Origin: Plumapathes pennacea
Lineage: Eukaryota; Cnidaria; Anthozoa; Antipatharia; Myriopathidae
Length of the DNA: 64,000 bases
Assembly: GCA_964036295.1 (NCBI GenBank)
Contig: OZ038466.1
Location: 17,434,597-17,498,596 of the forward strand
Reading direction: 5' to 3'
The translations under genes were made by a program, and so were the position numbers. Shown here piece after piece: positions 32,075 to 63,750 of this stretch. The notes beneath the pieces were generated by a model, which did no database searches, was not told the origin of the DNA, and saw only the letters and a program-made list of their open reading frames with translations. Position 1 is the first letter of the stretch. Each line of letters begins with the position of its first letter.

Positions 32075-32573
32075 TCAAAATTCAGAGTAAAGTTTGTATC
32101 ATTTTAGCTATTCCTATTCCGGAATATGGCCAATAGAATGCACCCTTACACTATTTTGTCAAGTAAGATAACTTTGAAATGGTTGTGTGCAATCATTTTA
32201 TTTGGTTATTTTTCATACATCAATGACTTGATACAGTTTATTAAAAAAGGGGATCAGTTTCCAGATTGGAATATAGGACACAATACATACTTCTCAAGAT
32301 GTCTGTAGACACACTAATCTGGTATTACTAGATACAGCAGGAGAATAAAAAAAGGAGAATTGTTTCCCAGATTTTCAGAGTGACGACTTAATGGACTTGT
32401 ATCTCCATCCTTCATGTACACTAGATCTTGGGACTTATGAAATGAATGAAGAAGCGGCAAAAATAGAAGAATGAAAGATGTACACAGAGGCAAAGTGGAC
32501 AAAACAGTCCAGAAGCACACATGAGTGCGATGAGTTTGTGGCCGTAAGCGGGAGACTGTTAAGTGTTGCCTGT

Positions 32574-34075: not shown

Positions 34076-34161
34076 TTTGACCAAGCTGACAATTGCTTTG
34101 TGGCCACTCCTGCATGGGCTTGGCAACCGCGCGACTTAAACCACGTGCCAAAACAGACAAG
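34076..34161. promoter_or_regulatory. Bidirectional LSM4/OGFOD1 promoter
   Basis: Only 86 bp separate the two divergent start codons, so both 5' UTRs and the core promoter must overlap here or extend into the first exons and introns. A CACGTG E-box lies at 34,142-34,147. AAGATGGCGG, the YY1-type motif common at housekeeping starts, spans the OGFOD1 ATG at 34,159-34,168. No TATA box is seen. Shared use is inferred from spacing. Confidence 0.7.
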
Positions 34162-40100: not shown

Positions 40101-43100
40101 AGGAGTACGCGCTTGATGCTATGCTAACGTTTGGAGGAGAAGGTAAGTTGGAAGACCACAAACGTTTCGCAAGGCAGCAGTGCTAAACGAAGCTTTATTA
40201 TATGCCTCTCATACAGTACATGAAGTAAATAGTTGGTTAATTTGACTGACAAAAACCCTAAACCATTTCACTTCCGAGAACGATAAACTTTTCTCCCCCA
40301 GTTTCTCACCAGAGATAGGTCATACGGTAGTTTGCTCAGAAAACTTATTGGACAATCAATTTCCACTACATCACTAATGCATTTTATTCTTGAATGGTTA
40401 AGAGAGTTTGTATTTTGAGGTCGAGAGCGAAGGGATTAATAACACAACAACAATAAACATTTTACGAGTCACGTGGACTGCACACTTAACTATCGATAAT
40501 GTTGGAAGACTTCAAACCTCAGTGACATCTGCCAGATCGTATTACCTTATCTCTTTTTCTATCGAGTGATCAACTTAAAGTTTTTCCTTTAATTTCTTAC
40601 CACGCACGTCAAATATCCTGTCGTTACTGATTGTATCGTGCAATGGTTACACAATTGGCAGTGTTCCGGAGTTTCAGAAGTTTGTGAGTTTATCCACATT
40701 TCACTTGTTAGAATTTCACAGCCTTGTGTATTCTTGAAGTAAACGGGTCGAGCTGTTCCTTTTCGAGTACGTTAGAAACACAGCAGACAAAATAAATCCC
40801 AGCATAACTAGTAAATTGGCCACTATGACCAACCAAACAATGGCGCCGGTGGAGTCGCTTGTTATGAACCTCAGTGCTGCAAATGAGTTTAACAAGACTG
40901 CGAGAACTACAGCCTCGAGGGTATTCTCAAAAGGGAAGCGATTGCTGGCAGACTTATAAGGCTTTAGAAGATGATGCACTGCAAGAGAAACCGTCAGGAC
41001 AGAGCAAATAAGCACAGTCTGCCAGGAAGGGTACGTCTTGAGAAACGACAAAGCAGATGCAAGCAGGAGACGACGGCTGAGAAGAACTATCTCGCAGAAA
41101 TATCGGCATGGTTTGTAACTGGAGCATAGAGGTTCTAGCCATGACTGTAACTCTGGATCGTCTGCAGTGCTGTCTTCTTGGATTATTTTACGATGCCTGA
41201 GCAATAGAGGTAGAAATACGAAGTATGGAACGCTGATGACGTACACGGCTAAAGACGCCCAACCCAAGGAACGGAGGATGCTATGAATTCTACTCGGACA
41301 TTCCACCCAGGGTACGCTTGGCATATATGATATACCGCTGTCCTCTTCACAGGGAGTCAACGCAGAAATTGTGGCCGTCACAATCGGAAAGTATGTGAAG
41401 TTAAGAATCGTGATGGTGATTCGGCGACACGTGAACGTCAGGCCTGTCCGATCTTCACTGCGTTTTCTTAACTTTTGATAAACCAGTTTGGCTGCGCAGT
41501 AGAGCCAGGTTAGCGTAATGCAGGCTATAGGAAGAAGTAAGGTAGAAAGGAGTTTGCCAACCGGGGTGAAGAGTATCGTGAAGTCGCAGGATAAGTCTGT
41601 GAAATGCAAGTTCCACAAGCCGCTGAAGTAGTGCTGCGTTGAGAGGACTTCCTCGGGCCACACATTCGGCGCAAAAGATATCATAGAATCCAGAAGCTGG
41701 AAGTAAAACATGGCGATTTTTATCAGCGAATGCAGTTCGTCTCTCTTACTGTAAATGACCGACACAAAGACGAACAGAGAGAAGCCAAACACCCAGCCAG
41801 GAACGACTCCAAGGATCACCAGGATCAGCATCAACAATTCTTGAGTAACTAAAGCAGCGTAAGCTATCAGTCGATGAAAGTTTGAATTAGAAAATGCCCA
41901 CCACAATATTGGAATGCTGACGACCACAGCAAGCACGGAAATGTAAAGCTTCGGTCTGTCCTTGGCACATTCGAAGCAGATTTGGCCGCTTTTATAGAAT
42001 CCATCCAGACAACGAGAACAGAAGCGACCGGTGTTGCCATAGGAACAAAGGCAACTGCTGTTACAATGTGTCAGCGGCTGGTTTGGCTGCGTCAACGTTC
42101 CGTTTGTAGATTCCAGCCAGCAAGAACAATCACCAGAGGGATTGCAAACCTTCGGCGAGAAACACTGGCCCAGATGGGAGACATTATTCGGTATGGGCTG
42201 CGGCCAAAAGCCCTTGTTTATTATCATGAAGCTTTTGTTCAAATCCTGCCAATCCTTGACTTCCGGTTTCTCACAGACAGCTCCGCTCATGCACTCGTGA
42301 CAAACACCGCTGGTGCCATAGTGGCCCTCATCGCAGACGCAATATCTGTAACCATAGTAACTTGGATCGAGATGAACATGCCCGTCGTTGAACGTGAACC
42401 GGACCTGGGGACAAGTGAAGTTATCGCTGTTTTCCACTTTTAGCATGTTCTGGAAATCAGGTCTCAAAAATTTCGGATTCATTGCATTTTTCGCTCCTCC
42501 TCCATCGGACATTTCTGGATTGCCAGTAATGTTGAAGTATTGCAGAGTTGTTGCGCTGTAAAGGGATTGTGGCACTGAACCTGTGAGGTTGTTGTTTGAG
42601 AGGTCAAGGTACGTGAGAGGGACGTTGTCCGGCCCATTTATCTCTGGTATAGTCCCATAGAACTGGTTGTTGCCCAGATCGAGTGTAAGAAGGCTGGTGG
42701 AAAACCACCACAGTCCTGATAGCTTTCCTCGGATTCCGCAATTGTTTAAATTTAAAGTTTGTATATCGTGAAAATTTCCCAACACATAATCGTCAAAACT
42801 CTCGAAGTCCAAAGAAATATTCCGATTCCCAGCTAAAGAAAGGAATTCGAGAAGAATACTTATATTCCCCTCTGGCTTCAATTTCGTGCCGTTGTTAAGA
42901 GACGTAAAACGGTTCCCTGAAAAATCTGCCTGTACCAAATTATGGGAGGTGAAGAACATTCTTGGAATGTCGCCACTCAGCAGGTTATTGCTCAAGATAA
43001 GTTTATGTAAGTTTGCGCCATCAAGTCTGCATTTGAAACTTGATGGAAGTTTGCCTCTGATGCCATTTCCTGGTAGTACTACTCGCGATAATAAACAAGA

Positions 43101-46100: not shown

Positions 46101-49100
46101 TGGTAGGCATTTCCGTTTCCTTTCGACTTCGATTCATGACAATTCGACTTCAATTGAAGAGTTTTCGACTTCGATTCACGAGAGTTCGACTTTAATTGAG
46201 GAGTTTTCGACTTCGATTCACGAGAGTTTTCGACTTCGATTCATGAGAATTCGACTTCAAATGAAGAGTTTTGACTTCGAGTGTTGAATTTCAATATGAT
46301 ATTTTTGTCCGTAACGGAACGCCATACATAGCGAAAGGGACGAAGGATTATATTATTGGTGATTTCAAGATGGTAGTAGATGTTTTGATTTCAAGCAGGT
46401 GTTTTTCATCAAACACGAAAGGCGGAAGTGCTAACCGCTTTGTCACTGCCGTGCTCTCGTAATTTGCATCAGTAAAAAAGGGTTAGACTAAAATAGAAGT
46501 TGAATATAATGGAGGTTATCAATCGAAAGTAGGAAAACCTTCTTGGATTAACATGTGCCGTAGCACAAACTTTAGTGGAGGATTGTATGGCCGTCGTTTT
46601 AACTTTGGGCTGGTGATCACTAAGACACAGTTACTGGTTACCAAAAGTAAATTAAATCAGACGTGGACTTACGATGTGTTACACGGGTTGATTTGCAACG
46701 ACGATTTTATTTTCTATATTTCTTGCCTAGTAATCGTCTAAACTATCAATTAATAGGAATCTTTGCACAAAAAAATGCCTTTGGCGAAGGTTCGCCATGA
46801 TTTTGGAGTAAAACCAAAGCGCTAGCTACAACATTATAGATGTTGCGCGACAAATCGTCGTTAAATATCGTCTCGTGTAACATCACCTTTAAGGCTTGGT
46901 TCAAACATCTAACTTGTCAACTCGTATGCCAAACTAATACTGCACTACTATGCATAAAGCGCTCGGCTTAGAGTGAATTAATTGAATGCGAATGTTTTGC
47001 AAGCAGTTAAAAAAGAAAGCGTCAAACGTCTCACGCACCAAATCTGTTGTATAAATGATATATGTCAGCGGTTAGGTCTATTTGTGGCGATTCATATGAT
47101 TTACTGTCAATTTGTTGTTAATTAACCACATTAATTCTACTTATAGATCGAATTACATAATGTAGATTGACTTTTGAAATACGCCTTAAAAGTTTGGAAC
47201 TTATCAGAACTTACCATTTTTAACAATGTAGCCGTCACACTCGAATCCGTTGGTGACTAGAGAGTGTTGAAACAATAGAAGCATGATTACTAAGAACTTG
47301 GATGCAGTCATTTTCCCGTGACTTTCTTCTGTCGGGTCCGTGTTTTCAAGCTCTTCTCCCCATGCGGAAATGAGGTTTTACATACTCGAGGTTTCTGATT
47401 TTGACAAAGAAACAGTATCGAAAGTAATAAAATTAACTATGACGTCTAGGCTCGTAAATAGTCTTTTGTTTGCCTCCACCAATCACTGAATTAAGCTGAA
47501 CTGTATTTAAGAAAAGTAGTTAATTACGTATTCAGTTGCTCAATAGGCAAAAGAACAGTTTGAAAGTTAAACTCTAAACGCATCATACTTATTAGAGTCC
47601 CAATTGATTTAGTCGATGATGTACAGCACGTGATTCCAAGAATGATCGACGAAGTCCTTTTAGTCGTCACGTTTGATGTGGTCTAATCAATTATAATCAG
47701 CGATTCCCACGGTGGTTATACAAATTTGCGTTTGCTCTATTTAAAATGTACATTCAACAAATCTGGTGAAGTTTAAATAAAGTCAGCAACTTTCAACTGA
47801 AAAAATCATTACTGTTTTCGTTACTTTTGAAACTGATGACTACCTGTTCTTTTTTTTTTTTTATGACCAAACCAACCTTTTGGAGAGCTATGCATCTATT
47901 GTGCATCTAACTTTCGACTCAGCCATGTTGATAAAAGGAAGTCTAACTTTGATTAGGGCCCACTGGTTTTGTCTGATGACATAGTCAATCACCAGTTGAT
48001 GTGGCACTTGGAGGTGTAAGGAGACTTGGTGTACTCATTGTATATTATAGGGGTACATGATTGTACCAAAGTTTTCAGCTGCTGGTATAGTTTCCTTCGC
48101 TTACTAACTGGGGAGGGGGTGGGGGGAGCGGAATATAATGGAAGTTATAAAAATCGAAAGTAGCGAAAACTTCGACCAAGGCTTGGATTTAACATGTCCC
48201 CGAAGTACAAACGAGGACTGTACGATCGTTGTTTCAAAGTTTCCTTCCCTTACTAACTGGGGAGGGGGGGGGGGGGGGGGGGGGGGTAGGTGGGGGGAGC
48301 GGAATGCAATGGAAGTTATAAAAATCGAAAGTAACGAAAACTTCGACCTTCGCCCCCGAAATACAAACGAGGACTGTACGGTCGTTGTTTCAACTTTGAG
48401 CTCATGAACACTACAAATCAGTTATTAATTGCGAAGAGTAAACTGAATCCGTCAACTGGTTGAAACATCGAACTTCTTTGTCAGCTCATATGCCGAGCCT
48501 AATGCTACGCTGTTAAGTGCACAAAAGGCTTCGCTTGCGATGAATCAATTGAGTGTGAATGTTCTAGAAGCATTTATATTCGATTAAGAGTTTGACAGAA
48601 CTTACCATTCAAAGCACATAAAATCTTTTCCTGACTGAATTCAACTTAAAGAAGCGTGGTGTCGGACTAAATACGAACACAAATTTATTCAGGAAAGAAG
48701 GACTGAAATGTTTTTTTAAATTGGTGTCTGGAAGACTCCACTAATCTGACTAAGCTCTAGCCTTTTGGGGGAAAAACAACAATTACTTCCAAAACTGGCC
48801 TCTATAGAAACGTGTGACTGTTTGGTGTTATTTTTTGCTTGTTTAGGTTGGGCCAACTTACTTGGCGAGCGTCTAAATCTATTTTTACTTACAATATATG
48901 TTAGTAGGTTTACTGCAGCAATCACATTGTGCTTCCCGTGCCGTAAAATACAGTATCACTGTTTTAAATAGACCCGTTATCTGTTCTTTGAAGCGGTCTC
49001 AAAATATAGAAGATTTGCTACTTTAAGAGACCTGAGATTGCGCAATTTTCCAGGGGAGCACGCTTCCGTACTCCCCCCCCCCACCTAGAGTGTCGCGCCT

Positions 49101-52100
49101 ACGCGCTAGCTATATATTTCTAATCTGCTGGCTCTACTTCTGCAGTGTTAACTTCGAACTTACAATCCTGAGCTTTCAATTTAACCTTAGGAGGTGTCAC
49201 TGTTCAAACAGAAAGCTCGCTGATGAATCCATCGGAAGGAATTGATATGAAACTTATGATAGTATATAAAGTGGGTCGGCAGTGTTTCTGAGTTTATCCA
49301 CATTTCATCTGTTAGAATTTCAGAGCCTTGTGTATTCTTGATGTAAACGGGTCGAATTGTTCCTTTTCGAGTACATTAGAAACACAGCAGACAAAATAAA
49401 TCCCAGCATAACTAGTGAATTGGCCACCATGACCAACCAAACAATGGCGCCGGTAGAGTCACTTGTTATGAACCTCAGTGCTGCAAATGAGTTTAACAAG
49501 ACTGCGAGAACTACAGCCTCGAGGGTATTCTCAAAAGGGAAGCGATTGCTGGCAGACTTATAAGGCTTTAGAAGAAGATGTACTGCAAGAGAAACCGTCA
49601 GGACAGAGCAAATAAGCACAGTCTGCCAGGAAGGGTACATCTTGAGAAACGACAAAGCAGATGCAAGCAGGAGACGACGGCTGAGAAGAACTATCTCGCA
49701 GAAATATCGGCATGGTTTGTAACTGGAGCAAAGAGGTTCTAGCCATGACTGTAACTCTGGATCGTCTGCAGTGCTGTCTTCTTGGATTATTTTACGATGC
49801 CTGAGCAATAGAGGTAGAAATACGAAGTATGGAACGCTGATGACGTACACGGCTAAAGACGCCCAACCCAAGGAACGGAGGATGCTATGAATTCTACTCG
49901 GACATTCCACCCAGGGTACGCTTGGCATATATGATATACCGCTGTCCTCTTCACAGGGAGTCAACGCAGAAATTGTGGCCGTCACAATCGGAAAGTATGT
50001 GAAGTTAAGAATCGTGATGGTGATTCGTCGACACGTGAACGTCAGGCCTGTCCGATCTTCACTGCGTTTTCTTAACTTTTGATAAACCAGTTTGGCTGCG
50101 CAGTAGAGCCAGGTTAGCGTAATGCAGGCTATAGGAAGAAGTAAGGTAGAAAGGAGTTTGCCAACTGGGGTGAAGAGTATCGTGAAGTCGCAGGATAAGT
50201 CTGTGAAATGCAAGTTCCACAAGCCGCTGAAGTAGCGCTGCGTTGAGAGGACTTCCTCAGGCCACACATTCGCGAAAGATATCATGGAATCCAGAAGCTG
50301 GAAGTAAAACATGGCGATTTTTATCAGCGAATGTAGTTCGTCTCTCTTACTGTAAATTACCGACACAGAGACGAACAGAGATAAGCCAAACACCCAGCCA
50401 GGAACAACTCCAAGGATCACCAGGATCAGCATCAACAATTCTTGAGTAACTAAAGCAGCGTAAGCTATCAGTCGATGGAAGTTTGAATTAGAAAATGACC
50501 ACCACAATATTGGAATGCTGACGACGACAGCAAGCACGGAAATGTAAAGCTTCGGTCTGTCCTTGGCACATTCGAAGCAGATTTGGCCGCTTTTATAGAA
50601 TCCATCCAGACAACGAGAACAGAAGCGACCGGTGTTGCCATAGGAACAAAGGCAACTGCTGTTACAATGTGTCAGCGGCTGATTTGGTTGCGTCAACGTT
50701 CCGTTTGTAGATTCCAGCCAGCAAGAACAATCACCAAAGGGATTGCAAGCCTTCGGCGAGAAACACTGGCCCAGATGGGAGACATTATTCGATATGGGTT
50801 GCGGCCAAAAGCCCTTGTTCATTATCATGACGCTTTTGTTCAAATCCTGCCAATCCTTGACTTCCGGTTTCTCACAGACAGCTCCGCTCATGCACTCGTG
50901 ACAAACACCACTGGTGCCATAGTGACCCTCATCGCAGACGCAATATCTGTAACCATAGTAACTTGGATCGAGATAAACATGCCCGTCGTTGAACGTGAAC
51001 CGGACCTGGGGACAAGTGAAGTTATCGCTGTTTTTCACTTTTAGCATGTTCTGGAAATCAGGTCTCAAAAATTTCGGATTCATTGCATTTTTCGCTCCTC
51101 CTCCGCCGTACATTTCTGGATTGCCAGTGATGTTGAAATATTGCAGAGTTGTTGCGCTGTAAAGGGATTGTGGCACTGAACCTGTGAGGTTGTTGTTTGA
51201 GAGGTCAAGGGACGTGAGCGGGACGTTGTCCGGCCCATTTATCTCTGGTATAGTCCCATAGAACTGGTTGTTGCCCAGATCGAGTGTAAGCAGTCTGGTG
51301 GAAAACCACCACAGTCCTGATAGCTTTCCTCGGATTCCGCAATTGTTTAAATTTAAAGTTTGTATATCGTGAAAATGTCGCAACATATAATCGTCAAAAC
51401 TCTCGAAGTCCAAAGAGATATTCCGATTCCCAGCTAAGGAAAGGAATTTGAGAGGAATACTTAGATTCCCCTCTGGCTTCAATTTCGTGCCGTTGTTAAG
51501 GGACGTAAAACGGTTCCCTGAAAAATCTGCTTGTTCCAAACTATGGGAGGTGAAGAACATTCTTGGAATGTCGCCACTCAACAGGTTATTGCTCAAGATA
51601 AGTGTAAGTAAGTTTGCGGCACCAGGTTTGCATTTGAAACTTGATGGAAGTTTGCCTCTGATGCCATTTCCTGGTAATACTACTCTGTATAATAAACAAG
51701 ACAAAGGATCTGGTAAAGAGCCATTAAGTGTCGTCCCAGAAATGAAAATATACGACAGAGATTTGAGAGACAGTAACTCGTGCAAGTCCCCTTTCAATAG
51801 TCCTTGGGTATTTTGCAACTCTATGTAGTACAGTTTTGAAAGTCTGCTTATACTCTTGGGTATAGATCCTGTGAATTTGTTTCCCCCAATACCTAAGAAT
51901 CTCAGCTCTTTGATATTCCCAAGATCTTCGGGTAAAGGACCATATAACTTTTCGCCAACCATGTCGCAAGCTAACAAGTTCTGCAAATTAACCAGCTTAG
52001 TTATTTGTGGTGGGATTATTCCGCTGTAGCTTGTTCGTCGTATGGAGAGTGTCAGAAGCTTGGACATATTTGCGTGGAGAAACTCTTCCAATTGTCCACT

Positions 52101-55100
52101 TAGAGCTGGGTTGTCGCTTGGACAAAGTGCCAATAGGTTACGTAGTTTCCAGAGGTCGTCGGTTAGAAATCCGTTCAAGTTGTTGGAAGCTAGCTGAATG
52201 CTCTTGACGTAAGGTGTATCTTTGTAACACGTGATGCCATACCACGAGCAGTGATGCATGCTGGAATTCAACCAACCAGTGTTGTTGCACCAATGATGGC
52301 CGCCTGTAGCGTTGTAGAGTTTGATCAAAACCTGCTTTTCTTCCTCTGGTGAGAAGGATACGTCTAAAGTGATGTTTGGCATGTCGCTAACACGTTTGAG
52401 ACAATCGTAACCTTCATCCGCAATGAATTGCTCCAAACCTGTGGAAATTATTATAAGCGGAAAAGCTTCGTTTGAGTTGGTAACATCGTGGATCAGCACT
52501 TCATGCACGTTCGAACAGTCGGGGAAAAGTGGAGGGGGATTTCTGATATAGAAATACGATATTCGCAGATATTCTCTCGTCCTGCAAAAGGGATAGGTAC
52601 AGTTTTTTCGATCAAATATATTTTTCTGTTAAATTAAAGAAGATTCCTTTAGGAAATATATTTACTTTAGGTTAAGTATTCTAAATTGGCATTGTCTCAT
52701 GTGATTGCGTAGTTGTTTCGTTACTATCCGGCTGCTGCTCAGTAATATGTGGATCGTAATTAACTCTTTCAAACCCAAACTCAAAATACAGATTCTCCCA
52801 ACCTTTCAAGAAACTATGAGTGATATAGCGAGAATTGATATTTCAATCAGCTTTCATCTGAGAGAGTTATCAAAAGCCAATATCTGCTTTCTGTATGATA
52901 TATTTCTGGTGAGAAACTGAAGGAGAAAATTGAAGTTGATCACTCTTGAGAGTGAAAGGGTTTATAACAACCACAACGCGGCACAGTTTTCTTCGAAAGA
53001 TGTCGCATGTTCAAGGCTCCGCGGAAAATAGATCTGATAAACCTAGGTCCACCCACTTAGTTTACCAGCGCGCCGACGCGGACCAAAGCTAGTTGTCATG
53101 GAAATCAGATGATGTGCTCTCTCAACCACAATCCTTTGCGCGCCTAAGTCCTCAATCCACCATTTTTATGGCTTCTAAAACCGCAATTGCCAACCATTTC
53201 CATCCGACTTGTTTGACAAAATTAATTTCGTTTCGCCTAAAATGAAATTTAGTGACGTACTCATTGATTTACTCGACGCGGGAACCAAAAGGCAACCTTT
53301 GGTTTATATTGATACATAGTTCTTATTAATCGAGGGGGAGGTCCGCTGCATAAAGGAATGTTTTGCCCGAGGTCTTTGAACCGACCGAGGCGCTTCGCCA
53401 AGTTCGGTTTATAAGGAGTTTATTAAATTACAACATTTATAACGGAAACGAAAATGAAACTTCGAAGAAAACCACTTTCACGCGCGGCTGTCAAATTTGA
53501 TGAGCATTTGACGTTTGCAGCCAAGGCGAATTCTTCTTCGAATGCGAATTCGTCGAATTCTTCGCTCTTTTTATAGTGAGGGTCCTTGTTTAACCAAAGT
53601 TCCGAAAGAACTGCTCGATATTTATTTATTTTTTCTTTTCTCACAAAATGCAGATTTCTCAAGCATAGGTTTATAGCCAAAATATTAGGGAAGGAAACTG
53701 AACTGATTGTTACGTTATTCCTGTGTGTTTTCGACATTCACAGTATCACACGGCGGCCATGTTTGATTGAAGCGTCCACTTGCGAAAAAGTTTAATCGAA
53801 ACTACAGGTTGTCACTGTTTCAAAACGAAGCCATGCAAAACTTGCGTTCATTTTCATGCAAAACTTTAAACGCATTATACACAGTAAGAAGCCCGACCAT
53901 TTAGTCATGATGCGATTTGATGTGATTTTAGAAAAGCAGCGGTTCCCACGGTGATTTTTCTAATTTGTGTTTGCTGCGGTCGATCGGGTTTTCGGTTTCT
54001 TGCATGGAAATCTGTTTGTTATCTTGGAATGAATGACTTATTTATACATTATATATAATTAGCAATTAAACTGAAAAATCTTTAGTGTCTTCATTCTTTT
54101 TTACACTTATGACTACCAATTTCTTTAATCCTTTGTGATGTTAGAATATGATACTCCTAAAATCAGTTTACACTATACTAGGAGATAAATAAAAGAAAAA
54201 TATATAAATAATACAGTGAGATAGAGATATGTATTATAAATCTAAAATTGCAAAACTTAGCTTGGGCAGGAGCCCATTACCCTGGCTTGGGTAGGTTACA
54301 ATGCAGGCATAGCAGAAATTTTAAAACTACTGCAGTGTGCCAGGGACGGGAGTTAATGGGACATTGTTCCAAGTTACTATAGTTCCAGGTTAGAAAGTCA
54401 TCGAAAACATGTTTCAAAACCAAGTTTTCATGTTTCAAGGCCGAATATAGAGGGCCACACGTTTATTAACTCTGCTATTATGTGCTACCCTCGTTAAATA
54501 AAGACATTACTTACTTACTTACTAATACCATTATAAATGTTATTGTTACACTGGAGTAGGCGAGTGAACACTTGATATGACGTGACATTTACAACATAGC
54601 GAAAGGGACGAGGGGTTATCTTATTGGCGATTTGAAGATGGTAGTAGATGTTTTGCTTTTAAGCAGGCGTTTTCCATCAAACACGAAAGGCAGAAGTGCT
54701 AACCGCTTCGTCACCGCCGTGCTCTCGTAATTTGCATGAGTACAAAAGGGTTAGACTAAAATAGAAGTTGAATATAATGGAGGTTATCAATCGAAAGTAG
54801 GAAAACCTTCTACTTGGATTAACATGTGCCGTAGCTCAAACTTTAGTGGAGGATTGTATGGCCGTTGTTTTAACTTTGGGCTGGTGATCACTAAGACACA
54901 GTTACTGGTTACCAAAAGTAAATTAAATCAGGCGTCGACTTAAGATGTGTTACACGGGTCGATTTGCAACGACGATTTTATTTTCTATATTCTTGCCTAG
55001 TGCATTTCTTGCCTAGTAATCACAAACTGCCTAGTAAGCACAAACTTTAGTGGAGGATTGTATGGCCGTTGTTTTAAGCTTTGGGCTGGTGATCACTACT

Positions 55101-56307
55101 GGTTGCCAAAAGTAAATTAAATCTGACGCTGACTTAAGATGTGTTACACGGGTCGATTTGCAACGACGATTCTATTTTCTATATTTCTTGCCTAGTAATC
55201 GTCTAAACTATCAATTAATAGGAATCTTTGCACAAAAAATGCCTTTGGCGAAGGTTTGCCATGATTTTGGAGTAAAACCAAAGCGCTAGCTACAACATTA
55301 TAGATGTTGCGCGACAAATCGTCGTTAAATATCGTCTCGTGTAACATCACCTTTAAGGCTTGGTTCAAACATCTAACTTGTTAACTCGTATGCCAAACTA
55401 ATACTGCACTACTAAGCATAAAGCGCTCGGCTTAGAGTGAATTAATTAAATGCGAATGTTCTGCAAGCAGTTAAAAAAGAAAGCGTCAAACGTCTCACGC
55501 ACCAAATCTGTTGTATAAATGATATATGTCAGCGGTTAGGTCTATTTGTGGCGATTCATATGATTTACTGTCAATTTGTTGTTAATTAACCACATTAATT
55601 CTACTTATAGATCGAATTACATAATGTAGATTGACTTTTGAAATACGCCTTAAAAGTTTGGAACTTATCAGAACTTACCATTTTTAACAATGTAGCCGTC
55701 ACACTCGAATCCGTTGGTGACTAGAGAGTGTTGAAACAATAGAAGCATGATTACTAAGAACTTGGATGCAGTCATTTTCCCGTGACTTTCTTCTGTCGGG
55801 TCCGTGTTTTCAAGCTCTTCTCCCCATGCGGAAATGAGGTTTTATATACTCGAGGTTTCTGATTTTGACAAAGAAACAGTATCGAAAGTAATAAAATTAA
55901 CTATGACGTCTAGGCTCGTAAATAGTCTTTTGTTTGCCTCCACCAATCACTGCATTAAGCTGAACTGTATTTAAGAAAAGTAGTTAATTACGTATTCAGT
56001 TGCTCACTAGGCAAAAGAACAGTTTGAAAGTTAAACTCTAAACGCATCATACTTATTAGAGTCCCAATTGATTTAGTCGATGATGTGCAGCATGTGATTC
56101 CATGAATGATCGACGAAGTCCTTTGAGTCGTCACGTTTGATGTGGTCTAATCAATTATAATCAGCGATTCCCACGGTGATTATACTAATTTGCGTTTGCT
56201 CTGTTTATACTTAATGTACATTCAGCAAATCTGGTGAAAATTAAATAAATTTCTTTCAACTGAAAAACCATTACTGTTTTCGTTACTTTTGAAACTGATG
56301 ACTACCT

Positions 56308-56339
<32 letters not shown>

Positions 56340-59300
56340 TTTCTCTAATTTTGTGATGACCAAACCAACCTTTTGGGGAATTATGCATCTATTGTGCGTC
56401 TAACGTTCGACTCAGCCATGACGATAAAACGAAGTCTAACTTTAATTAGGGCCCACTGGTTTGTCTGATAACATAAGCAATGACACTTGGAGGTGTAAGG
56501 AGACTTGGTGTACTCTATGTATATTATAGGGGTACATGATTGTACCAAAGTTTTCAGCTGCTGGAAAAGTTTCCTTCGCTTACTAACTGGGGAGGGGGTG
56601 GGGGGTGGGTGGGGGGAGCGGAATGCAATGGAAGTTATAAAAATCGAAAGTAACGAAAACTTCGACCAAGGCTTGGATTTAACATGCCCCCGAAATACAA
56701 CCGAGGACTGTACGGTCGTTGTTTCAACTTTGAGCTCATGAACACTACAAATCAGTTATTAATTGCGAAGAGTAAACTGAATCCGTCAACTGGTTGAAAC
56801 ATCGAACTTCTCTGTCGGCTCATATGCCGAGCCTAATGCTACGCTGTTAAGTGCACAAAAGGCTTGGCTTACGATGAATCAATTGAGTGTGAATGTTCTA
56901 GAAGCATTTATATTCGATTAAGAGTTTGACAGAACTTACCATTCAAAGCACATAAAATCTTTTCCTGACTGAATTCAACTTAAAGAAGCGTGGTGTCGGA
57001 CTAAATACGAACACAAATTTATTCAGGAAAGAAGGACTGAAATGTTGTTTTAAATTGGTGTCTGGAAGACTCCACTAATCTGACTTAGCTCTAGCCTTTT
57101 GGGGGAAACCAACAATTACTTCCAAAACTGGCCTCTATAGAAACGTGTGACTGTTTGGTGTTATTTTTTGCTTGTTTAGGTTGGGCCAACTTACTTGGCG
57201 AGCGTCTAAATCTATTTTTACTTACAATATATGTTAGTAGGTTTACTGCAGCAATCACATTGTGCTTCCCGTGTCGTAAAATACAGTATAACTGTTTTAA
57301 ATAGACCCGTTATCTGTTCTTTGAAGCGGTCTCAAAATATAGAAGATTTGCTACTTTAAGAGACCTGAGATTGCGCAATTTTCCAGGGGAGCACGCTTCC
57401 GTACTCCCCCCCCCCCCCCCCCCCCCCCCCCCACCTAGAGGGTCGCGCCTACGCGCTAGCTATATATTTCTAATCTGCTGGCTCTACTTCTGCAGTGTTA
57501 ACTTCGAACTTACAATCCTGAGCTTTCAATTTAACCTTAAGAGGTGTCACTGTTCAAACAGAAAGCTCGCTGATGAATCCATCGGAAGGAATTGATATGA
57601 AACTTATGATAGTATATAAAGTGGGTCGGCAGTGTTTCTGAGTTTATCCACATTTCATCTGTTAGAATTTCAGAGCCTTGTGTATTCTTGATGTAAACGG
57701 GTCGAATTGTTCCTTTTCGAGTACATTAGAAACACAGCAGACAAAATAAATCCCAGCATAACTAGTGAATTGGCCACCATGACCAACCAAACAATGGCGC
57801 CGGTAGAGTCACTTGTTATGAACCTCAGTGCTGCAAATGAGTTTAACAAGACTGCGAGAACTACAGCCTCGAGGGTATTCTCAAAAGGGAAGCGATTGCT
57901 GGCAGACTTATAAGGCTTTAGAAGAAGATGTACTGCAAGAGAAACCGTCAGGACAGAGCAAATAAGCACAGTCTGCCAGGAAGGGTACATCTTGAGAAAC
58001 GACAAAGCAGATGCAAGCAGAAGACGACGGCTGAGAAGAACTATCTCGCAGAAATATCGGCATGGTTTGTAACTGGAGCACAGAGGTTCTAGCCATGACT
58101 GTAATTCTGGATCGTCTGCAGTGCTGTCTTCTTGGATTATTTTACGATGCCTGAGCAATAGAGGTAGAAATACGAAGTATGGAACGCTGATGACGTACAC
58201 GGCTAAAGACGCCCAACCCAAGGAACGGAGGATGCTATGAATTCTACTCGGACATTCCACCCAGGGTACGCTTGGCATATATGATATACCGCTGTCCTCT
58301 TCACAGGGAGTCAACGCAGAAATTGTGGCCGTCACAATTGGAAAATATGTGAAGTTAAGAATCGTGATGGTGATTCGTCGACACGTGAATGTCAGGCCTG
58401 TCCGATCTTCACTGCGTTTTCTTAACTTCTGATAAACCAGTTTGGCTGCGCAGTAGAGCCAGGTTAGCGTAATGCAGGCGATTGGAAGAAGTAAGGTAGA
58501 AAGGAGTTTGCCAACTGGGGTGAAGAGTATCGTGAAGTCGCAGGATAAGTCTGTGAAATGCAAGTTCCACAAGCCGCTGAAGTAGTGCTGCGTTGAGAGG
58601 ACTTCCTCGGGCCACACATTCGGCGCAAAAGATATCATAGAATCCAGAAGCTGGACGTAAAACATGTTGATTTTTATCAGCGAATGCAGTTCGTCTCTCT
58701 TACTGTAAATGACCGACACAAAGACGAACAGAGAGAAGCCAAACACCCAGCCAGGAACAACTCCAAGGATCACCAGGATCAGCATCAACAATTCTTGAGT
58801 AACTAAAGCAGCGTAAGCTATCCGTCGATGAAAGTTTGAATTAGAAAATGACCACCACAATATTAAAATGCTGACGACGACAGCAAGCACGGAAATGTAA
58901 AGCTTCGGTCTGTCCTTGGCACATTCGAAGCAGATTTGGCCGCTTTTATAGAATCCATCCAGACAACGAGAACAGAAGCGACCGGTGTTGCCATAGGAAC
59001 AAAGGCAACTGCTGTTACAATATGTCAGCGGCTGGTTTGGTTGCGTCAACGTTCCGTTTGTAGATTCCAGCCAGCAAGAACAATCACCAGAGGGATTGCA
59101 AGCCTTCGGCGAGAAACACTGGCCCAGATGGGATACATTATTCGGTATGGGCTGCGGCCAAAAGCCCTTATTCATTATCATGAAGCTTTTGTTCAAATCC
59201 TGCCAATCCTTGACTTCCGGTTTCTCACAGACAGCTCCGCTCATGCACTCGTGACAAACACCGCTGGTGCCATAGTGGTCCTCATCGCAGACGCAATATC

Positions 59301-62300
59301 TGTAACCATAGTAGCTTGGATCGAGATAAACATGCCCGTCGTTGAACGTGAACCGGACCTGTGGACAAGTGAAGTTATCGCTGTTTTTCACTTTTAGCAT
59401 GTTCTGGAAATCAGGTCTCAAAAATTTCGGATTCATTGCATTTTTCGCTCCTTCTCCGTCGGACATTTCTGGATTGCCAGTGATGTTGAAATATTGCAGA
59501 GTTGTTGCGCTGTAAAGGGATTGTGGCACTGAACCTTTGAGGTTGTTGTTTGAGAGGTCAAGGTACGTGAGCGGGACGTTGTCTGGCCCATTTATCTCTG
59601 GTATAGTCCCGTAGAACTGGTTGTTACCCAGATCGAGTGTAAGCAGTCTGGTGGAAAACCACCACAGTCCTGATAGCTCTCCTCGGATTCCGCAATTGTT
59701 TAAATTTAAAGTTTGTATACCGTGAAAATTTTGAGAAGCATACTTGTCAAAACTCTCGAAGTCCAAAGAGATATTCCGGTTCCCAGCTAAAGAAAGGAAT
59801 TTGAGAGGAATACTTATATTCCCCTCTGGCTTCAATTTCGTGCCGTTATTGAGAGACGTAAAACGGTTCCTTGAAAAATCAACCTGTGCCAAACTTTTGG
59901 TAGTGAAGAAAATTCTTGGAATGTCGCCACTCAGCAGGTTATTGCTCAAGTTAATGTTTTTTAAGTTTGCGGCACCAGGTCTGCATTTGAAACTTGATGG
60001 AAGTTTGCCTTTGATGTTATTTCCTGGTAGTACTACTCTTGATAGTAAACAAGACAAAGGATCTGGTAAAGAGCCCTTAAGTGTCAGCCCAGAAATGAAA
60101 ATAAACGATAGAGATTTGAGAGACAGTAACTCATGCAAGTCCCCTTTCAGTAGTCCTTGGGTATTTTGCAACTCTATGTAGTACAGTTTTGAAAGTCTGC
60201 TTATACTCCTGGGTATAGATCCTGTGAATTTGTTTCCCCCAATGCCCAATAATCTGAGCTTTGCCATATTCCCAAGATCTTCCGGTAAAGCACCAGATAG
60301 CTTTTCGCCAACCATATTGCAAGCTAGCAAGGTCTGCAAATTAGCCAGCTTGGTAATTTGGGGTGGGATTATTCCGCTGTAGCTTGTTCGTGTTATGGAG
60401 AGGGTCAGAAGCTTGGACATATTCGCGTGGAGAAACTCTTTGAATTGTCCACCTAGAGCTGGGTTGTCGTTTGGACAAAGTGCTAATAGGTTACGTAGTT
60501 TCCACAGGTCATCGGTTAGAAATCCGTTCAAGTTGTTGAAAGCTAGCTGAATGCTCTTGACGTAAGGCGCATCTTTGTAACACGTGATGCCATACCACAA
60601 GCAGTGATGCATGCTAGAATTCAACCAACCAGTGTTGTTGCACCAATGATGGCCGCTTGTAGCATGGTAAAGTTTGATCAAGACCTGCTTTTCTTCCTCT
60701 GGTGAGAAGGATTCGTCTAAAGTGATGTTTGGCATGTCGCTAACACGTTTGAGACAGTCGTAACCTTCATTTCCGATGAATACCTCAAAACCTGTGGAAT
60801 TTAATATAGATGAATAAGCTTCGTTTAAACCTATAAATCAAAACATGAACATCGACCTTGTATTGATTGAATGTGCAGTTTACCACCGCGCCGAGCTCTC
60901 AACCAGTCCTTTGCGCACCGAGGTCCCCCATGCCTCAAAAATCGTCGCCCCAAAAATCGAACGCACTTTTATCCGATTTGTTTGAGAAGATTAGTTTCGT
61001 TTGGCCTTTAGTGGAATTTGGTGGCGTACTTTGTCATCGATTTTCCAAAAAGCAACCTTTAGGTTTAGATTCTCTAGCATAAAAGTTCCTTTAGTCGTCA
61101 CGTTTGATGTGATTGGTAGCGGTTTCCACGGTGATTATTATAAATGTACAAACTTGTGTTTGCTGCGGTCGATCGGATTTTCAGTTTCTTTGGGAAAGTG
61201 TTTATTGCCTTGATATGAATGATATGTTTATACATGTATGCAACCAGCAAAACTAGTGGTACTTTAAAGTAGGAACTAATTTAACTGAAAAATCATTGTC
61301 TTCGTTCCTTTTGACACCTATGACTAGTACCGATTTCTCCTCAGACGGTTTTGATTTCAAGCAGGCGTTTTTTCATCAAGGACGAAATGCAAAAGCGCCA
61401 ACCTTTTCGTCACGGCTGTGCTCTCGTAATTTGCATCGGTACAAAAGGGTTAGACAAATACAATGGAGGCTTTGAATCAAATCGAAAGTATGGAAAACTT
61501 CCACTTGGATTTAACATGTGCCGAAGTACAAACTTAACTAATTTTCGCTAGGACTGTATGGCCGCGCTGTTTGAACTTTGGGACTGATGCTTGGTTCAAA
61601 CATCGAACTTGTCAACCCCTAGTTCACTATTGAGTGCATCAAATGTTCGGTTTATATTAAACCAATTGAATGCGAATGTTCTGCAAGTCATGCAGAGTCG
61701 GCGGCCGACCTAACAAAACGGTTTAAGCTTGACTCCGATTCATACGCCAAACATCCCATGTGCCGAGTATATTAGTGATATATGTGAGCGATTAGGGTAA
61801 TTTGTGGTTGTTCACATGACTTAACTGTCACTTTATTGCTAATCGACCACATTAATTCTACTTTTTGATCGAATTGAATAATGTTGATTGACTTTTAATA
61901 TACGCCTCATAAGTTTGGAACTTATCAAAACTTACCATTTGGAACAGTGTGGCCGTTACACTCAAATCCGTTGATAACTGGAGAGTGTTGAACCAAAAGA
62001 AGCGTCATCACCCAGATCCTGGACGCAGTCATTCTCCTGTGTTTTGTGGGCGTTACCGCTGTCTTCTTCTGCAGAGAGCGTCTGTGTTCTCAAGCTCTTC
62101 TTCCAGCGAAAATGAGATTGGATATACTCGAGGATTCTGATTTTGACAGAATATCGAAAGTAAATTATCTTTGACGTCACGGCTCGTGAACAGTCCTTTG
62201 TTTGGCTCCACCAATCACTACAAGCTGAACATTATTTGAGAAAAGCAGTTTATTACATATTCACATGGTTACTCGATAAACAGTTAGTTATTCTGTCTTT

Positions 62301-63750
62301 AGTTTTCAACTTGCTGAAGTATGGAGCTTTAGACACATCGCCGTCAGAGTCAACTTATCAGCCATGATGAAATCAGTCTTAACTTTGATTAGACTATAAG
62401 ATATCGGCCCACTGGTTTTGTTTTGTATACATCTTTCCTGATGCGGAAATAATCTGGAGGCGATGTTCTCATGATTGTACTGACGTTTTTAGCTGCTGGT
62501 AGAGTTTCCTTTGCTTACTAACTTAGTAAATTCATATGTTTATATTTTTAGCCGGCTTCACGAAGCATGAAACTAAGGTGGATTAGTTATCATACGTCAC
62601 CACGTGTGTCTCATACTTTGCAGTTAAAAATAGATTCATACATCACGTCCCTGGGAACCGATTAAAAAAAAGAAGCGGAAAACAATGGAAGTTATGAAGA
62701 TCGAAAGTAGGAAACCTTCGACTTGGATTTAACATGCCCGCGGAAGTACAAACGAAGACTGTACGCTTTCGGTTGATGAACAACTAATGTTTGAACCAGT
62801 TGACGGTTTTTGGTTACTTTACTCTTCGCAATCAGTAAGCGTTTCTTATGATAAGGAATGGTTACTGATTGCGAAGAGTAAAGTAACCAAATCCGTCGAC
62901 TGGTTCAAACATCGAAATTCTCAGTTCTTATGCCAAGTCTATAAAATGCTCGGCTTACAATGAATCAATTGAGTGCGAATGTTCTACAAGCAATAACTAT
63001 AATCGATTAGGAGTTTTGACGGAACTTATTAGAACTTACCATTCAAAGCACTCAAATCCGTTTGTGAATGGAGAGTGTAATATACACACGTGCGCCAGTT
63101 GAAAGTCAATCAATCAGCAAAGCATCATGGATGATAATGACGTACAAGGAACATCCAATAACAGAGTATTGAACTAAAAGAAGCGTGGTATCTGACTGTA
63201 TACGAACACATATTTATCAGGAAAGAAGAACTGCAACTTTGCTAAATTTATGTCTGGAAGACTCCACTAATCTGACCAAGCTCTAACCTCTTGGGGGAAA
63301 ACCACAATTAGCATATGTAATAAATAGGACTACATACTGTCCAATTTGGAATAATTGGATGAGAAAAATTCCTAGGACTGCCAAAATGTTTTAGTCAGAG
63401 GAATTTTTCGAATTTAATTATTTCCAAATTGGACAGCAATTAGTCTTGTTAAATGTGTTAATTATATTGTACACACGAGGAAATAAAAAAAATGCTGTTA
63501 TTTGTGTAGACATTTATTGTATATAACGATAACTGCAAACTGTCCAATCAATTCCTAATTAGAAAGTTTGAAAAATTAAGAAGTAATACAGTGGTTGCTT
63601 GTGTGGGATTTCGAGTGTACAATATAATTATTCCCAAAACCGGCCTCTATAGAAACGTGTGACTGTCAGGTGTGTTTTTTTGCTTGTTTAGGTTGGACTA
63701 ACGAGTACGGAGGGTTTACAACTTACCTGGCGAGCGGAGAAGATGAAGAA
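34162..63750 (+). CDS. OGFOD1: Prolyl 3-hydroxylase OGFOD1 (partial, C-terminus beyond the window)
   Basis: 2-oxoglutarate/Fe(II) dioxygenase that hydroxylates a proline in ribosomal protein uS12 (RPS23) and affects translation and stress granules. Exons: 34162-34316, 34616-34635, 34888-35036, 35407-35453, 35617-35717, 36487-36576, 36737-36763, 36869-36960, 37095-37223, 38275-38388, 38818-38897, 39171-39324, 39995-40142, 63692-63750. All phases fit and give 455 residues; the human protein has about 542, so roughly 60 residues should follow. The iron ligands are H163 and D165 (in CHDDE) and H226 (in SFHQ); the 2-oxoglutarate arginine is R238 (in TRLSISGW). The second dioxygenase-like domain starts about residue 260. 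Exon 2 is a 20-nt microexon, chosen because its donor GGTAAGAG restores frame. Intron 13 is 23,549 bp and contains three genes on the other strand. Confidence 0.93.
36251..36432. mobile_element. Hairpin MITE in OGFOD1 intron 5
   Basis: AAATATATAA..TGTAATATAGC..AGGAAGTTGGGAGAACAC at the left is the reverse complement of the right arm ending TATATATTT. The loop is about 40 bp. Confidence 0.75.
37836..37980. repeat. 28-bp tandem repeat in OGFOD1 intron 9
   Basis: The unit GACTGGGTAGCTGTCTGGCT plus GACTGATT is repeated about five times. The surrounding intron (37,270-38,120) is rich in degenerate CAGTCAGTC/TCAGCTA text. Confidence 0.85.
39433..39715. mobile_element. hAT-like MITE, copy 3 (reverse orientation, diverged)
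   Basis: CGCGGAAGTACGTTC and TGTTTCCGCGGTGTC ends, with GTCTTGAGGTTTTACG inside in the opposite orientation to the copies at 11,309 and 16,628. It contains a 22-bp direct duplication (ATAGTATAAACACGACCAAA). Confidence 0.6.
40258..40435. mobile_element. piggyBac-like MITE, copy 3 (diverged)
   Basis: Matches the copy at 20,718 in TTTCTCACCAGA, TTTGCTCAGA and TCTTGAATGGTTA. The right side GAAGGGATTAA is retained and the left end is eroded. It lies between OGFOD1 exon 13 and the stop of receptor copy A. Confidence 0.6.
40716..47311 (-). CDS. LRR / Cys-rich / multi-pass membrane receptor-like protein, copy A
   Basis: Two coding exons: 47215-47311, then 40716-43837 (intron 43838-47214), total 1,072 residues. 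Exon 1 encodes [22 protein letters not shown], a signal peptide. The mature protein starts near GFECDGY. An LRR N-cap with WxNxTGW and CSWYGITC is about residues 66-104. LRRs of the plant type (LxLxNNxLxGxIP) fill about 105-475, for example [13 protein letters not shown] near 442. A cysteine-rich EGF-like stalk is about 505-660. About ten hydrophobic helices span 661-1057, and a basic tail of about 18 residues follows. No kinase, TIR or death domain is present. Function is unknown; a surface recognition receptor is an inference. The longer open frame from the ATG at 43,781 is only the second exon. Both large mobile insertions lie in its intron. Confidence 0.88.
44171..44856. mobile_element. 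Multi-hairpin MITE
   Basis: Ends ATTACACG and CGTGTAAT. It contains successive hairpins: 44,171-44,309 (TTACACGGCGGCTTGAAG and complement), 44,327-44,494 (ACACGAGTGTTTTAC and complement) with a perfect palindrome at about 44,391-44,413, and 44,511-44,646 (TTACACG..GTGTAATA). The aligned position in copy B near 54,230 lacks it. It may be several nested copies of one family. Confidence 0.7.
45080..46327. mobile_element. Foldback (FB-like) element with subterminal repeats
   Basis: A near-complete inverted repeat of about 1.25 kb. The ends are TATGGCGTTCCGTTACGGAC and its reverse complement, the arms are roughly 600 bp each, and the centre is about 45,710-45,755. Inside each arm is a 42-bp tandem unit containing TCGAAGTCGAAAACTCTTC. 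Copy B at 54,591-54,600 has the uninterrupted site ACAACATAGCG, so the target duplication is ATA or CATA. The open frames inside encode no recognisable transposase. Confidence 0.85.
48600..48660 (-). pseudogene. Decayed receptor first exon (unit A)
   Basis: The motif ACTTACCATTCAAAGCACA matches 63,034 and, more weakly, the active exon-1 donor regions. Downstream it has lost the signal-peptide coding text. An equivalent lies at 56,936-56,990 in unit B. Confidence 0.5.
48847..48880 (+). pseudogene. Decayed copy of OGFOD1 exon 14 (unit A)
   Basis: TTGTTTAG|GTTGGGCCAACTTACTTGGCGAGCG matches the acceptor and both ends of the exon at 63,692. About 20 nt of the middle (ACGAGTACGGAGGG region) are lost, and the 3' end and donor are gone. 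The upstream flank (CTGGCCTCTATAGAAACG near 48,795) is also shared with 63,637. Confidence 0.8.
49320..55775 (-). CDS. LRR / Cys-rich / multi-pass membrane receptor-like protein, copy B
   Basis: Exons 55679-55775 and 49320-52438, total 1,071 residues, same layout as copy A. Exon 1 is identical to copy A over all 97 nt, while the 3' half and 3' flank are closer to copy C. One residue is deleted in the loop after the fourth transmembrane segment ([10 protein letters not shown] against [11 protein letters not shown]). The frame stays open upstream of the acceptor at 52,439-52,440 to an ATG at 52,508. I reject that start because the splice joins the same G codon as in A and C and supplies the signal peptide. 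Confidence 0.88.
52764..52960. mobile_element. piggyBac-like MITE, copy 4 (reverse orientation)
   Basis: Left TTAA at 52,760-52,763, right end GAGAGTGAAAGGG. The interior is the reverse complement of copy 1 (TTTCTGGTGAGAAACTGAAG). It sits in the intron of receptor copy B. Another copy begins at about 63,966 and runs off the window. Confidence 0.65.
55841..55848 (-). promoter_or_regulatory. TATA box of copy B
   Basis: On the minus strand the sequence reads GAGTATATAAAACC, a canonical TATA box ending about 66 bp upstream of the ATG at 55,775. The aligned site in copy A (47,377-47,384) reads TATGTAAA, and in copy C (around 62,120) it reads GAGTATATCC. Confidence 0.5.
56936..56990 (-). pseudogene. 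Decayed receptor first exon (unit B)
   Basis: Near-identical to the remnant at 48,600, with a donor-like CTTACCATTC and no remaining signal peptide. Confidence 0.5.
57180..57213 (+). pseudogene. Decayed copy of OGFOD1 exon 14 (unit B)
   Basis: It has the same truncated sequence as the fossil at 48,847, 8,333 bp away, with the acceptor still intact and the middle and donor missing. The deletion therefore predates the duplication that made these two units. Confidence 0.8.
57670..62032 (-). CDS. LRR / Cys-rich / multi-pass membrane receptor-like protein, copy C
   Basis: Exons 61936-62032 and 57670-60791 (intron 1,144 bp), total 1,072 residues. Exon 1 has diverged ([22 protein letters not shown]) but keeps a signal peptide and the same phase. 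The LRR region has the most substitutions of the three copies, clustered about residues 270-340 of the full protein (for example [35 protein letters not shown]). The transmembrane part is almost identical to copy B. Intact open frames in all three genes argue that they are functional. Confidence 0.88.
62787..62912. repeat. Inverted duplication in unit C spacer
   Basis: ATGTTTGAACCAGTTGACGG..CTTCGCAATCAGTAA pairs with TTACTGATTGCGAAG..GGTTCAAACAT, arms of about 50 bp. Units A and B have only one arm (48,418-48,475; 56,752-56,810). Confidence 0.75.
63030..63080 (-). pseudogene. Decayed receptor first exon (unit C)
   Basis: On the minus strand CACTCTCCATTCACAAACGG ATTTGAGTGC and a donor GTAAGTTC resemble the end of exon 1 of the receptor genes (HSP..NGFEC). 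No ATG or signal peptide precedes it, and the phase is shifted by one base, so it cannot serve as a first exon for the known main exons. Confidence 0.6.
63338..63436. repeat. Inverted repeat upstream of OGFOD1 exon 14
   Basis: CTGTCCAATTTGGAATAATT and AATTATTTCCAAATTGGACAG flank a loop with GAAAAATTCCT / AGGAATTTTTC arms, about 100 bp, MITE-like. Confidence 0.65.
63692..63750 (+). other. OGFOD1: OGFOD1 exon 14, separated from exon 13 by 23.5 kb
   Basis: The acceptor TTGTTTAG precedes an exon whose phase (2 nt completing the G left at 40,142) matches exon 13. It encodes [20 protein letters not shown], which closely matches the [20 protein letters not shown] segment of human OGFOD1, and ends at donor GTAAGA at 63,751. 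This is the evidence that OGFOD1 continues across the receptor cluster. Confidence 0.92.

What the first reader, a model, noticed from the sequence alone, without database searches (positions are those of the whole stretch)
40143..63691. Three membrane-receptor genes nested antisense inside one 23.5-kb OGFOD1 intron
OGFOD1 exon 13 ends in phase 1 at 40,142. The next exon, with matching phase and clear OGFOD1 homology (EYGGFT..GEDEE), is at 63,692. Everything between is a tandem cluster of opposite-strand receptor genes. A housekeeping dioxygenase must therefore be transcribed through, and spliced over, a variable receptor array, which could couple or interfere with its expression.
Basis: partly seen in the sequence, partly recalled or inferred. 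Interest (0 to 1): 0.8.

Follow-up and report, generated by a model that had tools for sequence, protein, structure and literature searches.

The report
Receptor array nested inside OGFOD1 intron
Three closely similar receptor genes sit backwards inside one huge intron of a ribosome-modifying enzyme gene, and decayed copies of that gene's own exon between them hint at how the cluster grew; genes within genes are common in animals, so this is a clear example rather than a new kind of system.

Summary
OGFOD1 (modelled as 15 exons, 508 aa, intact) has exon 13 ending at 40,142 and exon 14 starting at 63,692 in matching phase; exon 15 lies 1.0 kb past the window and completes the gene. The 23,549-nt intron 13 holds three intact, opposite-strand, two-exon genes for LRR/multi-pass membrane proteins (93-94% identical). 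It is about 18 times longer than the next longest intron.

Two truncated relics of OGFOD1 exon 14 lie between the receptors, each followed by sequence otherwise found 1.25 kb downstream of the OGFOD1 stop. The simplest account: one receptor already nested in intron 13; a tandem duplication of receptor plus OGFOD1 exons 14-15 plus downstream DNA; deletion of the end of proximal exon 14 and of exon 15; then unequal crossing-over, giving three receptors (B is an A/C mosaic). OGFOD1 now has to splice over the whole array. That is inferred; no RNA was available.

Nested opposite-strand gene clusters are known (CENPP, MED12L hosts). The host-exon relics are the unusual part. Coupling or interference remains untested.

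The parts
34162..40142 (+). OGFOD1 exons 1-13 (34162-34316, 34616-34635, 34888-35036, 35407-35453, 35617-35717, 36487-36576, 36737-36763, 36869-36960, 37095-37223, 38275-38388, 38818-38897, 39171-39324, 39995-40142)
   Evidence: GT/AG boundaries, phases and open frame; human OGFOD1 4nhx E=8e-149
40143..63691 (+). OGFOD1 intron 13, 23,549 nt, host of the array
   Evidence: phase-1 exons either side; other 13 introns 105-1,282 nt
63692..63750 (+). OGFOD1 exon 14 (intact); exon 15 and stop lie beyond the window at C5:17499629-17499790 (65,033-65,194)
40716..43837 (-). receptor A, exon 2
   Evidence: Pfam LRR
47215..47311 (-). receptor A, exon 1 (start codon, hydrophobic N-terminus)
49320..52438 (-). 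receptor B, exon 2
   Evidence: Pfam LRR
55679..55775 (-). receptor B, exon 1
57670..60791 (-). receptor C, exon 2
   Evidence: Pfam LRR
61936..62032 (-). receptor C, exon 1
48781..48871 (+). relic 1 of OGFOD1 exon 14: intron flank and acceptor kept, 25 nt of exon left (48847-48871), 20-nt internal deletion, last 14 nt and donor missing
   Evidence: E=1.6e-15 in the own-genome search; alignments
57114..57204 (+). relic 2 of OGFOD1 exon 14, same lesions as relic 1 (exon part 57180-57204)
   Evidence: E=1.6e-15 in the own-genome search; alignments
48872..49286 (.). J' junction 1: its two ends are homologous to C5:17501039-17501262 (66,443-66,666), downstream of the OGFOD1 stop, with about 195 nt of unmatched DNA between; ends where homology to the left flank of receptor A begins
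57205..57636 (.). J' junction 2: copy of junction 1
40143..40679 (.). left part of intron 13 not shared with the other units; homology to them begins at about 40,680 (left breakpoint of the first duplication)

Best explanation
A receptor gene on the opposite strand was nested in OGFOD1 intron 13. A tandem duplication with breakpoints at about 40,680 (intron 13) and 66,666 (1.47 kb past the OGFOD1 stop) copied receptor + exon 14 + exon 15 + downstream DNA. The proximal host exons, now redundant, were lost by a deletion from within exon 14 to the downstream J sequence plus a 20-nt deletion, leaving a relic with an acceptor but no donor. Unequal crossing-over between receptor exons then copied the receptor-relic-J' block, giving three receptors. 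OGFOD1 keeps only its distal exons 14-15, so it must be transcribed through and spliced over about 23.5 kb, while the receptors use their own minus-strand promoters. Shown: anatomy, relics, junction homology, mosaic copy B. Inferred: order of events, splicing, independent receptor transcription.
For: Complete in-phase OGFOD1 across the intron. Relics match exon 14 at E=1.6e-15 each and the own-genome search returned no match outside this locus. The sequence after each relic matches DNA 1.25-1.47 kb downstream of the OGFOD1 stop, and that homology ends at 49,286, where homology with the left flank of A starts at 49,284, as a duplication joint predicts. Among the matches scored, J positions 1-171 match nowhere but at the array junctions. 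Divergence falls in two tiers: A/B spacer blocks 98-100% identical; A or B versus C 83-87% in exon 1 and upstream, 90% at the exon-14 flank; J' versus J 80-90%. B is a mosaic: 12 of 12 variable sites in the 3'-most 250 bp match C, and 23 of 36 in the two 5'-most bins match A. All three receptors are open, dN/dS 0.31-0.36.
Against: No RNA evidence for the 40,142-63,692 splice. No related genome could be searched, so the empty or single-receptor ancestral state was not seen. The 5' (LRR) part of exon 2 of A and B is 94.2% identical (LRR dS 0.11), less than the spacer blocks measured (98-100%), and 53 of 205 variable sites group A with C against B, so at least one further exchange with another donor is needed. 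About 195 nt inside J' have no counterpart in J, and the last about 60 nt of J belong to a dispersed repeat. No relic of exon 15 was seen in the array. Whether another, divergent OGFOD1 exists is unknown: that protein search did not complete.
Confidence: 0.82

Rival explanations
1. Convergent-first: the receptor originally lay tail-to-tail downstream of OGFOD1 next to J, and became nested only when a duplication copied exons 14-15 to its far side and the proximal copies were deleted.
For: J' adjoins the 3' end of both receptors B and C.
Against: Needs complete loss of exon 14, exon 15 and J left of A and loss of a receptor right of J. It also does not explain why J homology stops (49,286) where homology with the left flank of A starts (49,284).
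Confidence: 0.1
2. OGFOD1 is functionally truncated: transcripts end in intron 13 or use a relic acceptor as a terminal exon, and exons 14-15 are unused.
For: Relic acceptors are intact; read as terminal exons they would add 41 codons to a stop, with AATAAA 548 and 565 nt after the relic exon start. Nested genes were linked to exonization in human hosts (PMC3192792, passages).
Against: Exons 14-15 are intact, in phase and conserved with human OGFOD1, and they fall in the C-terminal domain (PMC4396695 passages), whereas the proximal copies decayed.
Confidence: 0.05
3. The array is an assembly artefact or retained haplotypes.
For: Copies are 93-94% identical in protein; not checked against reads.
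Against: No N in the stretch. Two divergence tiers, long unmatched stretches in the introns of A and B, exon 14 in one intact copy and relics that differ from it are not what a haplotype duplicate gives.
Confidence: 0.03
4. The nesting is maintained because antisense receptor transcription regulates OGFOD1.
For: Opposite orientation; nested genes can interfere with their hosts (PMC3192792, passages; the minigene case there is same-orientation).
Against: Ordinary duplication explains the structure without selection for nesting. A 2026 study found nested genes no more likely than unnested ones to diverge in expression in Drosophila or mammals, though shifts were larger in Drosophila when they occurred (PMC13343718, abstract).
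Confidence: 0.08

Closest known systems
Nested opposite-strand clusters in vertebrates: CENPP hosting ECM2, ASPN, OMD, OGN; MED12L hosting P2RY12, P2RY13 (PMC3933685 Table 1, seen in passages)
   Same: Several genes for LRR proteins or membrane receptors, listed as different-strand genes nested in one unrelated host.
   Different: Here the copies are closely similar, and decayed copies of the host's own exon lie between the guests. Whether those vertebrate loci carry host-exon relics was not examined here.
LRRTM genes nested in alpha-catenin introns (PMC3933685, abstract and passages)
   Same: LRR membrane genes with one or two exons nested antisense in one large intron of a conserved host; three host/guest pairs.
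   Different: One guest per host, with host and guest presumably duplicated together by genome duplication, not a tandem array within one intron.
Nested intronic genes of animals generally (PMC8527503: 2,357 nested genes in 1,654 hosts in Hormiphora, passages)
   Same: Gene wholly inside a single intron of another.
   Different: No general difference; this locus is one more example with a readable history.

Membership tests
Nested intronic gene (opposite strand) | guest gene lies wholly between two exons of a host | tested here: met
Nested intronic gene (opposite strand) | guest on the opposite strand and intact | tested here: met
   3 of 3 receptors open, two exons each
Nested intronic gene (opposite strand) | host transcript spliced across guest; guest independently transcribed | not testable with these tools
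   no RNA data
OGFOD1/Ofd1/Tpa1 uS12 prolyl hydroxylases | catalytic 2OG-Fe(II) oxygenase domain plus Ofd1 C-terminal domain | tested here: met
   PF13661 149.2 bits and PF10637 127.6 bits, cut-offs 27; 4nhx E=8e-149
OGFOD1/Ofd1/Tpa1 uS12 prolyl hydroxylases | uS12 hydroxylase activity | not testable with these tools
   needs an enzyme assay
LRR proteins (plant receptor-kinase-like ectodomain) | LRR repeats above cut-off | tested here: met
   PF00560 44.2-50.1 bits, cut-off 20.6; best PDB hits of receptor C are GSO1 and FLS2 ectodomains
LRR receptor kinases of plants | intracellular kinase domain | tested here: not met
   no kinase family at E up to 0.001 in 3 of 3 proteins
TRP (PF06011) membrane domain | score above the curated cut-off 28.5 | tested here: not met
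   20.6, 25.3, 24.7 bits: resemblance only

The most novel reading that the evidence does not exclude
The relics are not inert. The mRNAs of receptors B and C may carry, in their 3' UTRs, an antisense copy of OGFOD1's intron 13/exon 14 acceptor: the first AATAAA or ATTAAA after their stop codons (48,684 and 57,018) lies beyond the relics, and relic and real acceptor share perfect stretches of 25 and 21 nt (68 of 77 identical). The sense relics are also decoy acceptors inside the OGFOD1 pre-mRNA. Receptor expression could therefore mask the true acceptor in trans and lower or redirect OGFOD1 splicing, tying a ribosomal hydroxylase to a receptor cluster.
Probability: 0.06. Interest if true: 0.8.

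Novelty: new variant of a known kind. Interest (0 to 1): 0.4.

Why it matters
It is a readable case of how a nested gene cluster can grow at its host's expense: the duplication takes the host's last exons along, the near copies die, and the host is left to splice over an ever longer intron. The host-exon relics mark each unit and give an order of events. They also predict decoy splice acceptors that RNA data can check directly.

Tried and rejected
Considered and rejected: an intact exon 14 near exon 13 (only truncated relics); receptor genes continuing downstream of OGFOD1 (no tblastn match in the 40 kb after the window, of which 2.5 kb reads N); J as a plain dispersed repeat (true only for its last about 60 nt among the matches scored); a known structured RNA behind that repeat (0 Rfam gathering-threshold matches in window + L004 and in five repeat loci); filing the receptors as TRP channels (below cut-off). 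Paralogues on C2 (two) and C12 (one) show no obvious nesting, judged by eye from flanking open frames. My first exon models had wrong boundaries and were corrected. Two calls used a wrong frame. Literature: eight searches were made. Of these, some bear on nested genes; none of the titles and abstract starts listed reports host terminal-exon relics between nested genes, but one search listed only 20 of 2,246 papers, one search found none, and the library lacks most subscription journals.

Led nowhere: the own-genome search with the OGFOD1 protein did not complete (16 calls). The structure prediction of the receptors was never accepted because the queue was full (7 calls). So neither OGFOD1 copy number by protein nor the receptor fold is known. 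The exon-14 DNA search speaks only against a recent copy.

Full report
What is there. The window is G000:C5:17,434,597-17,498,596 of a 290-Mb, 24-contig genome. OGFOD1 on the plus strand was modelled as 15 exons with GT/AG splice sites and continuous phase, 508 codons and a stop. The last exon lies outside the window, at extended coordinate 65,033-65,194. The product matches human OGFOD1 with E = 8e-149, including the stretch that crosses the 13/14 join, and has both Ofd1-family domains above cut-off. Intron 13 is 23,549 nt; the other 13 introns are 105-1,282 nt.

The guests. Intron 13 holds three minus-strand genes. Each has a 97-nt first exon encoding a hydrophobic start and a second exon of about 3.1 kb, joined in the same phase. 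Proteins A, B and C are 1072, 1071 and 1072 aa. They have plant-type leucine-rich repeats (Pfam LRR; plant receptor-kinase ectodomains as best solved relatives of receptor C), a cysteine-rich stretch and a hydrophobic C-terminal half (both read by eye) that resembles the TRP family below its cut-off. No kinase family was found. dN/dS between copies is 0.31-0.36, so they look constrained (simple Nei-Gojobori, three sequences). In the own genome, exon 2 of receptor C finds 7 matches at E up to 1e-10: the three here, two on C2 (50% identical), one on C12 (38%) and one weak partial match on C4.

The exon-14 relics. The own-genome search with exon 14 and its left flank returned 3 matches, all at this locus: the real exon, and two places 61 nt long and 90% identical. 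These lie between A and B (48,781-48,871) and between B and C (57,114-57,204). Both keep the acceptor. Of the 59-nt exon they keep 11 nt, lack the next 20, keep 14 (with three substitutions over the kept part), and then stop matching; the donor is gone. From about 48,872 on, the sequence matches DNA at 66,443-66,504 and, after about 195 unmatched nt, at 66,508-66,666, that is 1.25-1.47 kb downstream of the OGFOD1 stop. That homology ends at 49,286, and homology to the left flank of receptor A begins at 49,284. A joint between the right end (66,666) and left end (40,680) of one tandemly duplicated unit predicts this. In the own-genome search J gave 43 matches: itself, four pieces at the two array junctions, and 38 covering only its last 48-65 nt, a dispersed repeat (its first look had 105 candidates, 40 scored, so counts are lower bounds). 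No relic of exon 15 turned up in the array.

Order of events (inferred). (1) One receptor nested in intron 13. (2) Tandem duplication of receptor, exon 14, exon 15 and J. (3) Deletion from within proximal exon 14 to J, removing proximal exon 15; a 20-nt deletion in what remained. (4) A second event copied receptor-relic-J'. Two tiers of identity fit this: A and B spacer blocks 98-100%; A or B against C 83-87% in exon 1 and upstream blocks and 90% in the exon-14 flank; J' against J 80-90%. Some A/B stretches score lower than that in BLAST: two pieces (46,326-46,731 and 46,562-48,237 of A, spanning part of intron 1, exon 1 and upstream DNA) are 94% and 92% identical with gaps counted. B is a mosaic: all 12 variable sites in the 3'-most 250 bp match C, while exon 1 and upstream match A at 99.6% and C at 82.8%. 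That is the mark of unequal crossing-over inside exon 2. It is not the whole story: the 5' part of exon 2 (LRR) of A and B is 94.2% identical, and 53 of 205 variable sites group A with C, so further gene conversion or a lost donor is needed.

How it most likely works. OGFOD1 is transcribed through the array and spliced over it, because its only intact exons 14-15 are distal. Those exons fall in the non-catalytic C-terminal domain (Pfam Ofd1_CTDD, residues 271-503 here; CTD 270-542 of human OGFOD1, PMC4396695, passages; which strands fall in exons 14-15 was not mapped). The receptors presumably use their own promoters; none was tested. Whether the two interfere is open. In human hosts, nested genes were linked to exonization and intron retention upstream of them; the minigene tested there had a same-orientation guest (PMC3192792, passages). 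A recent comparison found nested genes no more prone to expression divergence than unnested ones in Drosophila or mammals, with larger shifts in Drosophila when divergence occurred (PMC13343718, abstract).

Compared with what is known. Nested intronic genes are widespread in animals (PMC8527503, passages). The guest is most commonly in the opposite orientation, and in 12 of 19 nested pairs lost in frog or chicken it encodes an LRR protein (PMC3933685, passages). That paper's table lists several guests in one host: ECM2/ASPN/OMD/OGN in CENPP and P2RY12/P2RY13 in MED12L. So the arrangement is a known kind. The host-exon relics make this a variant in which the growth mechanism is written in the sequence. 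Six searches of an open-access library bearing on nested genes listed no report of such relics; one listed only 20 of 2,246 papers, so this is weak evidence of absence.

Bold reading. The first AATAAA or ATTAAA after the stops of B and C lies past the relics (636 and 652 nt), so their 3' UTRs could be antisense to the OGFOD1 exon-14 acceptor, with perfect runs of 25 and 21 nt. Receptor A has nearer signals (128 nt ATTAAA, 333 nt AATAAA) and no relic downstream. Other poly(A) signals were not scanned. I give this 0.06.

Limits. The OGFOD1 protein search and the receptor structure prediction did not complete or accepted (see Tried and rejected).

Noticed in passing
63,035-63,095 (and about 48,600-48,625, 56,935-56,960): Each unit carries upstream of its receptor, near exon 14 or its relic, a second decayed exon-1-like fragment with a donor (antisense; seen by eye), suggesting an older lost receptor copy.
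   Followed up: partly
C5:17501211-17501275 (66,615-66,679), end of J, beyond the window: The last about 60 nt of J belong to a dispersed repeat with at least 38 other copies, some in clusters spaced about 350 bp on C1 (30,497,409-30,500,418) and C2 (10,954,643-10,956,810); no Rfam match in five loci fetched.
   Followed up: partly
45,081-46,326: Large imperfect inverted repeat (about 78% identical to its own reverse complement), foldback-element-like, in intron 1 of receptor A; the flanking DNA continues without it in B.
   Followed up: no
40,716-60,791, receptor exon 2: Between copies the LRR half is more diverged, in synonymous sites too, than the membrane half, suggesting homogenisation of the membrane half by gene conversion.
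   Followed up: partly
32,560-34,161: A minus-strand gene whose product looks like LSM4 (named from memory, read by eye) starts about 90 bp from the OGFOD1 start: a possible shared bidirectional promoter. A DOCK-like plus-strand gene (from memory) lies upstream.
   Followed up: no
receptors A, B, C: Plant-type LRR ectodomain joined to a hydrophobic membrane half; best solved relatives of the ectodomain of receptor C are plant receptor kinases such as GSO1 and FLS2.
   Followed up: partly
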